Shown here piece after piece: positions 41,636 through 47,559 of a stretch of DNA of 64,000 bases (position 1 is the stretch's first letter; each line of letters starts with the position of its first letter). The stretch is from Candidatus Ozemibacter sibiricus. Its GTDB lineage: Bacteria; Muiribacteriota; Ozemobacteria; Ozemobacterales; Ozemobacteraceae. The notes under the pieces are model-generated. The model saw nothing but the letters and a program-made list of their open reading frames with translations, was not told the origin of the DNA and ran no database searches. The translations under genes and the position numbers were made by a program. The stretch spans positions 115,083 to 179,082 of the forward strand of contig QOQW01000012.1 of NCBI GenBank assembly GCA_003327425.1. Direction: 5' to 3'.

Positions 41636-44617
41636 ATGGATGGATCGTTGCGACAACCGCTTTCTTTCTGGGCGCGGTGGCGCCTGCTCGGCCCCTGGCT
41701 GGTGCCGTTCTGCCTTTCGGGCCTGGCCGCCCTGGCGCTGGCGGTCTTCCTCGAGCTGAACCAGCAGCGGGCCGAGGTGCGGGTCAGGCAGGCCTGGGAA
41801 GCCGAGGCGCGGCGGGCCATCGGCCTCATTCGGTCCTCGCAACGCCTGGCCGAGCGGGTCGACCGGATGGGCTTCCGGCTGCGTCAGAAGCTGGAGCAGG
41901 TCGTGAGCCGAGGCGGGAAGGGGGCCTGGTCGGTCGCTCTGGTGCGGCGAGAGGCGGCCCGGGCCTTCCACCCTCTGATCTGGCGCGCGGTCGACGAGGG
42001 CGTGGTCATCAAGCGCGGACGGGATGGAACCTGGCAGGCGCTACCCTGGCCGGGCGCTCCACCGGGTCGGAGCCGCCTGGTGGCAGGCGTGCTGGCCGAC
42101 TTCGTCACCCTGGCGCAAGGCGAGGACCTGCCGGCGAATCGGCTCGAGGCCTTGAAGGTACGGTCGGTCGGTCTGTTCGGTCCGGTCGGGGAGCCGCTGG
42201 TCCTGGGGCGGCACCAGGTCGGGCACCTGACCACGGTCTGGTACGGAGGAAAACGGGCCGAGATCCTGTGGGATGTGGTCATGGCCGGGCGGCAGCCGAT
42301 CGGGGCCTATCTGTTCGTCTTCCAGCGAGCGCCGTTGGCGCGGTTTCAGCCGTTGCGACGGGCGCTCGACGAGGTGGCGGCGCGGTTCGGACCGCGCCAT
42401 CTGCCGCTGCTGGTGCCCGCTGGCGGCGAGGTTTCCCGCCGGAAGATCGTGGGACCGCGTCGACGACGCCTGCCGTCCGATCTGGTGCCTCTCATCCGCC
42501 AGATCCGTCGGTCGGCTCCCGCCGGCCGCCTCGAACGTCTTCCCCTCGAACGCACCCTGGAAGTCGGCGGTCGACGATGGTTCCGGTCGTTCCTGCACGA
42601 AGATCGGCCCTGGGAAATCTGGATCGTTTCGCCGGTGCGCGCTGCCGATCGGCTGACCACCCATGGCCGGGCGCTGGGGGTGGGTGCGGCCTTCGCCGCC
42701 TTCTGGCTGGCCGTGGGGCTGGCGGTGGTGGGCCGGGGCCGCCCTCTGCCCATTCCGATGCGGGTTTCGTTCACCGCCCTGTTCCTGTTGATGGGGGGCT
42801 TGCCGCTGGCCGTCTTCCTGGCCCTGGGGCTCACCCGGCTCGAAGCCACCCTCGATGCCGCCATCCAGCGGGCACGGCAACAGGGCGAGGAGACCCTGGT
42901 CGCCCTCGACCGCCAGGGGGGACAAGCCCTGCGCGATTTCCGGGCGGCCGGCCAGGCGCTGATGGAACGGCGGTCCGTGCGGGCCGCCCTGCTGGCCGAC
43001 GATCCTCGCGGCTGGGCGGCGGTGGCCAGCCTGGCCTTCCGCCTGTTCCCTCGCTTCCATTCCCAGCTCGATCGGCTGCTGGTCTTCCCGATCAGAGAAT
43101 CGGCCACCGAATTCACCCGCCCCGGGGCCGGGCCCGGCGAAGGACCTTTGGCCGCGGCCGGTCTGGCCGCCTCCCTCAAAGGCTTCCACGACATTCTCTG
43201 GTTGCCGCCCGACGATCCGCAGCACGGGTTCGTCCTGTCGGATCGGCAGAAGGAGATGGAAACCGCGCTGCGGGCCGGTTTCAGCCAGGTCTCGCAGATC
43301 GTCTATGCATGCAAGCTCCAAGGGGAAGCCTTGCAGATCTCCCCGCGCGAGAGGTTCTTCCGGTGGATCGATATCCTCACCCGCCACGGAGCGCCGGCCC
43401 GCTACCTCCTGTTCCAGCTCAACACCTGGTCGCTGGTCGAGCGCCTCCTGCGGAGCGGCGCCGCCCGCCGTGTCCTGGCCCGACCCACCGATCGATTCCT
43501 GGTGGCGGAAGTGACCTCCGGCGGGATCCGGCCCCTCTTTCCTCCAGCCGCCTCGGCCTTCTGGCGATCGGCCGAAGGCCGGCGGTGGTTCCGGCGGCTG
43601 ACCGACGGGGCGACGCGCGATGGCGGGCAGGATGGACTGGAGGCCACCACCCTGTGGCTGACGCGGCGGGCCGAGCGGTCGGGGCCGTTCGTCCTGGGGG
43701 CGGGTCTCGACCTCTCTGCCGCCTGGGAAGAGCATGCGCAGGGTCGGCGGTGGTTGTGGCTGTTGACAGGTGCGCTGTTGGCGTTGATCGGCTGGGTCGG
43801 CCGCGTGGTGGGAGACCATCTGATCAGGCCTCTGGGCGGCTTGCAGCAAGCCCTGGCCCGGGTAGGGGAGGGGAATCTCGAGGTCCGCCTCGGCTTCGCC
43901 CGGGCCGACGAAATCGGCCACCTGGCCAGGCAGTTCGATGAGATGATCCGGGGCCTCCGGCAGCGGCGCGATCTGGCCCGCTTCGTCCCTGACAGCCTGG
44001 AGGCGCGGGTCCGTGGCCAGGCCGGCCCGACCGGCCTGGAGCCGCGCCTGGAGGAAGGCGTGGTGCTGGTCGCCGACCTGCGCGGGTTCACCACCCTGGC
44101 CGAGGCGCATCCGCCCGAGACGATCGTCGCGCTCCTCAACCGCCACATCGAAGCGATGACCGGGCCCATCCATGCCGAAGGCGGGCGGATCGAGCAGTTC
44201 ATCGGCGATGCCGTGGTCGCCCTGTTCGTCGATCCGGGGCCGGGGCAGCCGGGCCAGGCGGCGCGCGCCGCGGTGCGCGCCGCCTGTGGCATGCGACGGG
44301 CCCACCTCTCTCTGCAGGCAGCCCGTCAGGCGGCCGGGGAGTTCCCCTATGAGATGGGCATCGGCATCGATGGCGGTCCGCTCATGGTCGGCGCCCTCGG
44401 TGGGGACACCCGCTCGGAATTCGCCGTCATCGGGCCGGCCCGCGAGGCGGCCGAAGCGCTGGAAGCCCGTTCGCGGGCCGGGGCCCATTCCCGCATCCTG
44501 GTGGCCGCCCATCTCTGGCCCTACCTGCGCGCGGAATTCCGGAGCACCGCCGGTCCTGACCCCGACTGCCTCGAGATCATCCTGCCCGAGAGCCCCGACG
44601 GAGTCCTGCCACGATGA
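41636..44617 (+). CDS. Receptor-like class III cyclase, metal-binding (C1-like) half: TM - extracytoplasmic - TM - HAMP - cyclase
   Basis: VADLRGFT and IGDAVVALF Asp residues present; VIGPAREAAEAL lacks Asn/Arg; HAMP DHLIRPLGGLQQALARVGEGNLEVRL; alternative GTG start 41621. Confidence 0.88.
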   Translation: MDGSLRQPLSFWARWRLLGPWLVPFCLSGLAALALAVFLELNQQRAEVRVRQAWEAEARRAIGLIRSSQRLAERVDRMGFRLRQKLEQVVSRGGKGAWSVALVRREAARAFHPLIWRAVDEGVVIKRGRDGTWQALPWPGAPPGRSRLVAGVLADFVTLAQGEDLPANRLEALKVRSVGLFGPVGEPLVLGRHQVGHLTTVWYGGKRAEILWDVVMAGRQPIGAYLFVFQRAPLARFQPLRRALDEVAARFGPRHLPLLVPAGGEVSRRKIVGPRRRRLPSDLVPLIRQIRRSAPAGRLERLPLERTLEVGGRRWFRSFLHEDRPWEIWIVSPVRAADRLTTHGRALGVGAAFAAFWLAVGLAVVGRGRPLPIPMRVSFTALFLLMGGLPLAVFLALGLTRLEATLDAAIQRARQQGEETLVALDRQGGQALRDFRAAGQALMERRSVRAALLADDPRGWAAVASLAFRLFPRFHSQLDRLLVFPIRESATEFTRPGAGPGEGPLAAAGLAASLKGFHDILWLPPDDPQHGFVLSDRQKEMETALRAGFSQVSQIVYACKLQGEALQISPRERFFRWIDILTRHGAPARYLLFQLNTWSLVERLLRSGAARRVLARPTDRFLVAEVTSGGIRPLFPPAASAFWRSAEGRRWFRRLTDGATRDGGQDGLEATTLWLTRRAERSGPFVLGAGLDLSAAWEEHAQGRRWLWLLTGALLALIGWVGRVVGDHLIRPLGGLQQALARVGEGNLEVRLGFARADEIGHLARQFDEMIRGLRQRRDLARFVPDSLEARVRGQAGPTGLEPRLEEGVVLVADLRGFTTLAEAHPPETIVALLNRHIEAMTGPIHAEGGRIEQFIGDAVVALFVDPGPGQPGQAARAAVRAACGMRRAHLSLQAARQAAGEFPYEMGIGIDGGPLMVGALGGDTRSEFAVIGPAREAAEALEARSRAGAHSRILVAAHLWPYLRAEFRSTAGPDPDCLEIILPESPDGVLPR

Positions 44618-47559: not shown

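What the first reader, a model, noticed from the sequence alone, without database searches (positions are those of the whole stretch)
41636..47559. Tandem class III cyclases with complementary catalytic residues: a bacterial C1/C2-type split adenylate cyclase
Seen directly: two adjacent genes overlap by ATGA (44614-44617). Both encode proteins with the same layout (N-terminal TM, extracytoplasmic region, further TMs, HAMP, C-terminal class III cyclase). Protein 1 keeps both metal Asp: VADLRGFT (codon 44075-44077) and IGDAVVALF (44207-44209). At the purine and transition-state positions it has Lys->Gln (44195), Asp->Glu (44417), Asn->Glu (44444) and Arg->Ala (44456; VIGPAREAAEAL versus VIGDxVNLAARL). 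Protein 2 is the mirror image: metal Asp->Gln (LFSQVRVV, 47044) and Asp->Glu (IIGEKV, 47170), but Lys (EIDKIIG, 47158), Asp (RLDHTVIG, 47359), Asn (47386) and Arg (47398) are intact. Established knowledge: class III active sites form at dimer interfaces; in mammalian ACs, C1 supplies the metal Asps and C2 supplies Lys/Asp plus Asn/Arg. Inference: neither protein should work as a homodimer, and the heterodimer should have exactly one productive, adenine-specific site and one pseudo-site, with two different sensor ectodomains feeding one output. Most characterised bacterial class III cyclases are homodimers. The intact cyclase at 8838-10097 serves as an in-window control.
Basis: partly seen in the sequence, partly recalled or inferred. 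Interest (0 to 1): 0.88.

Follow-up and report, generated by a model that had tools for sequence, protein, structure and literature searches.

The report
Bacterial split C1/C2 adenylate cyclases
Two neighbouring bacterial genes each carry only half of an adenylate cyclase active site and should make cAMP only as a pair; the same division of labour recurs in dozens of gene pairs across the phylum Riflebacteria, many fused into one protein laid out like mammalian adenylate cyclases, a form described in the literature as unknown in bacteria.

Summary
In detail: all twelve codons are as stated. One assignment needs correcting: the adenine-specifying position is the Thr at 47365 (Ala at 44423 in protein 1), not the Asp at 47359. 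The pair is one of 17 in its own genome, which appears to be a Candidatus Riflebacteria MAG with 53 class III cyclase domains. In 82 pairs from eight genomes, one domain (C1) keeps both metal Asp and the P-loop Thr but has lost Asn/Arg. The other (C2) has lost the first metal Asp (all but one) but keeps Lys, Thr, Asn and Arg. Unpaired cyclases in the genome are 18/20 complete; paired ones 0/34. C1 and C2 form separate clades with catalytic columns masked. In 35 pairs both halves lie in one ORF of about 2,000-2,560 aa (two truncated by contig ends), 4 TM-HAMP-C1-4 TM-HAMP-C2. Sixty-three more fused proteins were found in metagenomes; all 62 complete ones show the same split. [quoted passage not shown] Best reading: obligate heterodimeric (split or fused) adenylate cyclases with one live site, one dead site and two sensor halves, evolved separately from mammalian ones. 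Activity is untested and the interface was not resolved by modelling.

The parts
41636..44617 (+). Protein 1 (P0001, 993 aa): C1-type half. TM about 21-39, ectodomain, TM about 347-365 and 381-399, second ectodomain, TM about 707-725, HAMP, class III cyclase domain
   Evidence: orthologue P0072 (78%, 989 aa) supports the start
44614..47559 (+). Protein 2 (P0002, 981 aa): C2-type half, same layout (TM about 4-22, 322-340, 357-375, 696-714; further hydrophobic stretches 534-552 and 567-585)
   Evidence: orthologues P0089 (75%) and P0090 (55%)
44614..44617 (+). ATGA overlap of the stop of gene 1 and the start of gene 2; the same type of -4 overlap recurs at most split pairs of the family
43817..43963 (+). 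HAMP domain of protein 1 (residues 728-776)
   Evidence: PF00672, E 8.6e-11
44060..44530 (+). Class III cyclase domain of protein 1 (residues 809-965)
   Evidence: PF00211, E 4e-7; PDB Cya2 2.2e-19, CyaB 4.4e-19
44075..44077 (+). Metal Asp 1, kept (VADLRGFT)
44207..44209 (+). Metal Asp 2, kept (FIGDAV)
44195..44197 (+). Purine Lys replaced by Gln
44423..44425 (+).
44444..44446 (+). Transition-state Asn replaced by Glu
44456..44458 (+). Transition-state Arg replaced by Ala
46768..46920 (+). HAMP domain of protein 2 (residues 719-769)
   Evidence: PF00672, E 8.5e-15
47011..47529 (+). Class III cyclase domain of protein 2 (residues 800-972)
   Evidence: PF00211, E 5.1e-7; PDB CyaB 6.9e-11
47044..47046 (+). 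Metal Asp 1 replaced by Gln
47158..47160 (+). Purine Lys, kept
47170..47172 (+). Metal Asp 2 replaced by Glu
47365..47367 (+). Adenine-specifying Thr, kept (corrected position)
47386..47388 (+). Transition-state Asn, kept
47398..47400 (+). Transition-state Arg, kept
47515..47523 (+). C-terminal Lys-Gly-Lys motif (phosphate-binding Lys in C2-type domains), kept; absent from protein 1
   Evidence: sequence; family statistics

Best explanation
The two genes encode the two unlike subunits of one membrane adenylate cyclase. Shown: each cyclase domain keeps only one half of the composite class III active site, and the halves are complementary. Protein 1 (C1 type) has the P-loop and both metal Asp. 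Protein 2 (C2 type) has the adenine-selecting Lys/Thr, the transition-state Asn/Arg and the C-terminal KGK Lys. Shown: the split is conserved in dozens of paralogous and orthologous pairs of Riflebacteria, and in many the halves are fused into one chain, C1 first. Inferred: the domains dimerise head to tail as in all class III cyclases, giving one live ATP site (metals from protein 1, base and transition-state contacts from protein 2) and one dead pseudo-site; neither protein alone should make cAMP. Inferred: each half has its own extracytoplasmic sensor region, transmembrane helices and HAMP, so one output reads two inputs; cAMP is read by cyclic-nucleotide-binding proteins, of which the genome encodes about a dozen.
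For: Codons. Own genome: 17 C1+C2 pairs, unpaired domains 18/20 complete. 82 pairs in eight genomes: 35 fused, 33 split C1>C2, 14 split C2>C1. C2: Lys 83/83 and Thr 83/83 (neither used to define the type), metal Asp 1 kept in only 1/83; C1: Lys 38/89, Thr 38/89. Untested-by-definition positions agree: P-loop Thr 88/89 against 4/83, KGK 0/88 against 68/82. Lost positions drift to many residues (11 kinds at metal Asp 1 of C2; 15 and 13 at Asn and Arg of C1) while kept ones are fixed at 32-36% mean identity: one composite site is under purifying selection, the other is free. C1 and C2 separate in a tree with catalytic columns removed (88/89 C1 in one clade, support 0.81); C1 and C2 distances correlate, r = 0.81, permutation maximum 0.19. 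62/62 complete fused proteins from metagenomes show C1 then C2. Fused ORFs in genomes of 25-28% GC exclude chance reading frames. Same arrangement in solved mammalian C1/C2 and sAC sequences. Precedent: Rv1625c D300A plus R376A regain activity when co-expressed (PMC4821796). PF00027 proteins in the genome.
Against: No activity data. No heterodimer model: the AlphaFold model of the fused C1..C2 piece (pTM 0.61) finds human AC5 first in Foldseek, but at TM 0.24/0.30 and rmsd 33 A, so it supports fold and order, not docking; coordinates could not be inspected. One pair departs from the pattern (L116: DQDEIT + DKEDNR), and six C1 domains keep Asn while 14 keep Arg. Shuffled-label tests do not remove relatedness, so the mirror-tree value shows co-inheritance, not contact.
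Confidence: 0.87

Rival explanations
1. Promiscuous pairing: C1 and C2 halves are obligate partners, but any C1 can meet any C2 of the cell, so the 17 pairs form an exchange network instead of fixed couples.
For: C1 and C2 halves of different pairs are homologous over the whole length, ten pairs of the own genome are split, and catalytic interfaces are conserved.
Against: Genes of a pair overlap or adjoin, C1 and C2 are co-inherited (r = 0.81), and seven pairs of the own genome are fused, which enforces cognate pairing.
Confidence: 0.2
2. Pseudo-enzymes: the pair no longer makes a cyclic nucleotide; the cyclase domains serve as nucleotide-sensing or dimerisation modules.
For: Both domains score weakly against Pfam (about 30 bits) and both lack residues; no activity data.
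Against: Exactly the residues needed for one composite site are fixed across deeply diverged pairs while the others drift; a pseudo-enzyme would not keep both halves in trans or in cis.
Confidence: 0.06
3. Independent decay: each protein lost residues by relaxed selection after a duplication, and the complementarity is chance.
For: A single ancestral split would by itself give the pattern in many related pairs.
Against: Unpaired cyclases of the same genome are 18/20 complete and only one fully degenerate domain was seen; continued fixation of the kept positions at about 35% identity is not expected under decay; a separate pair in another family (G001, KKDTNR + DKDSSR) shows the same logic outside the main clade.
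Confidence: 0.02
4. The pair is a heterodimeric cyclase but for another nucleotide (cGMP or a pyrimidine), or with relaxed specificity.
For: Specificity was read from two residues only.
Against: Lys/Thr is the adenine-selecting pair of CyaC, CyaB and sAC-type enzymes (class knowledge; Lys 83/83 and Thr 83/83); guanylate cyclases have Glu and Cys or similar.
Confidence: 0.08

Closest known systems
Mammalian transmembrane adenylyl cyclases (ADCY1-9; C1/C2 pseudo-heterodimer)
   Same: One domain supplies the metal Asp, the other Lys, the second adenine residue, Asn and Arg; membrane-bound; the fused relatives have the order membrane-C1-membrane-C2.
   Different: Window pair is two genes; about 4 TM per half with large ectodomains and HAMP, not 6 TM without ectodomain; Thr, not Asp, at the second adenine position; C1 and C2 of mammals pair with each other in the tree (0.98), which argues for separate origin, though a tree with sAC added places these long branches unstably.
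Soluble adenylyl cyclase (ADCY10)
   Same: Tandem C1-C2 in one chain, C1 = D-K-D with Asn/Arg lost, C2 = N-K-..-T-N-R; both window proteins match the corresponding half of human sAC in the PDB search (P0001 to residues 40-195, P0002 to about 320-418).
   Different: sAC is soluble with AAA/TPR regions and no HAMP or TM; no sequence evidence of a specific relationship to the Riflebacteria clade.
Bacterial class III homodimers (P. aeruginosa CyaB, Arthrospira CyaC, M. tuberculosis Rv1625c)
   Same: Same catalytic fold and best PDB matches; same Lys/Thr type as CyaB and CyaC.
   Different: Those carry the whole site in one domain and form two sites per homodimer (PMC4174876).
Heterodimeric rhodopsin guanylyl cyclases (NeoR/RGC) and animal soluble guanylate cyclase alpha/beta
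   Same: Obligate heterodimer of class III domains with two different sensors.
   Different: Eukaryotic, make cGMP; in the rhodopsin cyclases the RGC1/RGC2 domains keep all catalytic residues (PMC8815786).

Membership tests
Class III nucleotide cyclase (PF00211) | Sequence match to the catalytic domain above the curated cut-off | tested here: met
   30.2 and 29.9 bits against 21.9
Class III nucleotide cyclase (PF00211) | A full composite active site within the dimer | tested here: met
   Complete only if the two proteins are combined
Class III nucleotide cyclase (PF00211) | Cyclase activity | not testable with these tools
   No assay
Canonical bacterial homodimeric class III cyclase | All catalytic residues in one domain | tested here: not met
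   Protein 1 lacks Lys/Thr/Asn/Arg, protein 2 lacks both metal Asp
C1/C2-type heterodimeric cyclase (functional type) | Metal Asp on one partner; adenine and transition-state residues on the other | tested here: met
C1/C2-type heterodimeric cyclase (functional type) | Physical C1-C2 heterodimer with the wreath arrangement | tested here: inconclusive
   Fused-piece model: right folds and order, no rigid match; coordinates not available
Mammalian-type transmembrane adenylyl cyclase (class IIIa) | Single chain with C1 and C2 | tested here: not met
   Two genes in the window; met in 35 fused relatives
Mammalian-type transmembrane adenylyl cyclase (class IIIa) | Two six-helix membrane bundles | tested here: not met
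   About 4 hydrophobic segments per half with about 300-aa ectodomains (hydropathy only)
Mammalian-type transmembrane adenylyl cyclase (class IIIa) | Asp at the second adenine position | tested here: not met
   Thr in 83/83 C2 domains
Mammalian-type transmembrane adenylyl cyclase (class IIIa) | Common ancestry of C1 and C2 with mammalian C1 and C2 | tested here: inconclusive
   Mammalian C1 and C2 pair with each other outside the clade, but placement is unstable when sAC is added
Mammalian-type transmembrane adenylyl cyclase (class IIIa) | Regulation by Gs alpha and forskolin | not testable with these tools
   Not expected in bacteria
Soluble adenylyl cyclase (sAC) | Soluble tandem C1-C2 with AAA/TPR C-terminal region | tested here: not met
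   TM plus HAMP, no AAA/TPR match

The most novel reading that the evidence does not exclude
Riflebacteria separately evolved a whole family of mammalian-type pseudo-heterodimeric membrane adenylate cyclases, split and fused, in which the degenerate second site has become an allosteric pocket and the two different sensor halves act as a coincidence detector.
Probability: 0.3. Interest if true: 0.93.

Novelty: new variant of a known kind. Interest (0 to 1): 0.85.

Why it matters
[quoted passage not shown] Here split and fused C1/C2 cyclases occur side by side in the same genomes, with possible intermediates (DKDTNR + DKGTNR in family f8). That makes the steps duplication, complementary loss and fusion directly comparable, and gives natural matched proteins to test what fusion and a dead second site are for.

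Tried and rejected
The genome-contig scan with P0002 gave only two loci, both rumen Riflebacteria, but these held fused proteins. Chance long ORFs were a concern at 70% GC; rejected because fused ORFs also occur at 25-50% GC and in 63 database proteins. Clustering of C1 and C2 caused by the catalytic residues themselves was rejected by masking those columns. Descent from, or ancestry of, mammalian cyclases could not be decided: trees with mammalian C1/C2 argue against it, a tree with sAC is unstable. AlphaFold of a fused piece (1,200 aa limit cut off the last 15 residues with the KGK motif) gave good local confidence but no usable interface. The ectodomain fold was not identified: Foldseek on the C1 half returned only cyclase matches in the top 50, and Pfam none. 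CRP-type regulators: no HTH_Crp_2 match over the cut-off, although 14 PF00027 matches exist. Literature searches for Riflebacteria with adenylate cyclase and for bacterial C1/C2 fusions found no report; the library is open-access only.

Full report
Observation. Two genes on the + strand, 41636-44617 and 44614-47559, overlap by ATGA and encode proteins of 993 and 981 aa. Both carry HAMP and a class III cyclase domain above the Pfam cut-offs, and hydropathy predicts the same layout: one N-terminal TM, about 300 aa outside, two TM, about 300 aa outside, one TM, HAMP, cyclase (protein 2 has two further hydrophobic stretches in its second outside region). One position was misassigned: the residue homologous to mammalian Asp1018 lies three before the Gly of the VIG motif. 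It is Thr at 47365 in protein 2 and Ala at 44423 in protein 1, not the Asp and Glu two residues upstream. Lys/Thr is the adenine-selecting pair of CyaC- and sAC-type enzymes (class knowledge), so the corrected reading fits better.

The genome. The window lies in a 5.68-Mb assembly in 58 contigs with 53 PF00211 matches. Named relatives are all Candidatus Riflebacteria, so the organism is inferred to belong there. Many matches lie about 3 kb apart on the same strand. A residue table shows 17 pairs, the window's included. In each, one domain keeps both metal Asp and has lost Asn and/or Arg, and the other has lost the first metal Asp and keeps Lys, Asn and Arg. Of the 20 unpaired domains, 18 are complete, so loss is tied to pairing.

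Relatives. In the same genus (G016, G017), other genera of the family (G022, G010, two rumen MAGs) and a second family (G035), nearly every pair shows the same split. In total 82 pairs were classified: 35 fused, 33 split with C1 first, 14 split with C2 first. Regions were chosen by proximity of two domains, not by their residues; of 65 two-domain clusters 62 are complementary, one is not and two are partial. The direct orthologue of the window pair reads DQDEDE + QKEDNR (L099). Further orthologues, P0072 and P0089, are each reported on a contig of 51,120 bases, probably the same one, and keep the pattern.

Independent positions. The types were defined by metal Asp and Asn/Arg. Positions not used agree: Lys 83/83 and Thr 83/83 in C2 against 38/89 each in C1; P-loop Thr 4/83 in C2 against 88/89 in C1; C-terminal KGK 68/82 against 0/88. 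Lost positions have drifted to as many as 15 different residues, while the kept ones are fixed at 32-36% mean identity. This is what selection on exactly one composite site would leave.

Fusion. In 35 pairs both domains lie in one ORF, always C1 then C2, mostly about 2,000-2,560 aa (L081 and L022:2-3808 are truncated by contig ends), with a symmetric TM pattern. These ORFs occur in genomes from 25% to 74% GC, so they are not an effect of high GC. A database search with one of them returned 63 fused proteins of this kind; 62 have both domains and all 62 show D-x-D without the Asn-Arg pair, followed by a C2 lacking the first Asp and keeping K, T, N, R. All names given by sources for these are Riflebacteria or merely 'adenylate cyclase'.

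Evolution. With the six catalytic columns removed, 88 of 89 C1 domains form one clade (support 0.81) and C2 domains fall outside it, mostly in one group. Fused pairs fall in two clades, each with a few split members, in both the C1 and the C2 part, which means two fusions, or one fusion and a later fission. C1 and C2 distances correlate at r = 0.81 (permutation maximum 0.19), showing co-inheritance. The N-terminal halves of C1 and C2 proteins are homologous over TM2-TM4 (hhalign E 3e-30, 13% identity), so the pair arose by duplication of a whole receptor cyclase. Family f7 shares the same C1 and C2 clades; family f8 has a tandem DKDTNR + DKGTNR, and family f2 a tandem KKDTNR + DKDSSR, both outside that clade: a possible intermediate and a separate origin. 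In the scans of families f3-f6, the loci examined were complete, but not every match was read. Mammalian C1 and C2 pair with each other away from this clade (0.98), which suggests separate origin; adding sAC makes these long branches unstable, so this is not settled.

Mechanism. Shown by sequence: complementary half-sites, conserved. Inferred: a head-to-tail heterodimer with one ATP site and one dead site, two sensors feeding one output. Precedent for complementation in a bacterial class III enzyme is Rv1625c D300A plus R376A (PMC4821796); for the mammalian arrangement, PMC4174876. Cyclic-nucleotide-binding domains occur 14 times in the genome, some with a recognisable GE..PRxA cassette, but no Crp-type HTH passes the cut-off, so the readers of the signal are unidentified.

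Structure. A 1,200-aa piece of a fused relative spanning C1 to C2 gave mean pLDDT 81.6 and pTM 0.61; the best Foldseek match was human AC5 over 1,228 columns, but with TM 0.24/0.30 and rmsd 33 A. This supports fold and order of domains, not their docking. The C1 half modelled alone gave only cyclase matches in the top 50.

Novelty. A 2022 review says a fused dimeric class III cyclase is unknown in bacteria (PMC9552081), and none was found in the open-access literature searched. The logic is known from eukaryotes, so this is a new variant of a known kind. A soluble bacterial protein with AAA/TPR and complementary tandem domains (P0075: DTDANA + NKNTNR) shows that the split is not confined to the membrane family, so the 'unknown in bacteria' statement may fail in more than one way.

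Noticed in passing
G000 (own genome), G016: 53 and 87 PF00211 matches per genome, well above the 'up to 30' class III isozymes per strain quoted in PMC9552081.
   Followed up: partly
L208 (G039), L219 (G042), family f8: Tandem cyclases of 915-987 aa with a complete domain (DKDTNR) next to one that lost only the second metal Asp (DKGTNR): a possible early stage of the split, outside the main clade.
   Followed up: partly
L221 (G001), family f2: Tandem KKDTNR + DKDSSR with two TM each, nested among complete cyclases: apparently a separate origin of a complementary pair.
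   Followed up: partly
P0075 (1442 aa, source jgi): Soluble bacterial sAC-like protein with AAA/TPR and two cyclase domains that are complementary (DTDANA then NKNTNR); its C1 groups with human sAC C1 at 0.97.
   Followed up: partly
L038 (G000:C29, ORF 3024-5381): Lone cyclase with GKEERH: lacks metal Asp 1, Asn and Arg; the only fully degenerate domain seen.
   Followed up: no
L094 (G016:C41): C1 and C2 of a fused-clade pair in separate frames about 2.4 kb apart; may be a broken fused gene or an assembly error.
   Followed up: no
L034 (G000:C36) and L086 (G016:C87): Split pair inside an otherwise fused clade: likely secondary fission.
   Followed up: partly
G000 genome: 14 cNMP-binding (PF00027) matches but no HTH_Crp_2 (PF13545) match over the cut-off, so cAMP may act through non-CRP effectors.
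   Followed up: partly
window:38024-41188 (-) and 47764-52059 (-): The pair is flanked by a divergent gene that reads like DNA polymerase III alpha subunit and by convergent sensor-kinase/response-regulator-like genes; read from the translations only, no obvious functional link.
   Followed up: no
   Followed up: yes
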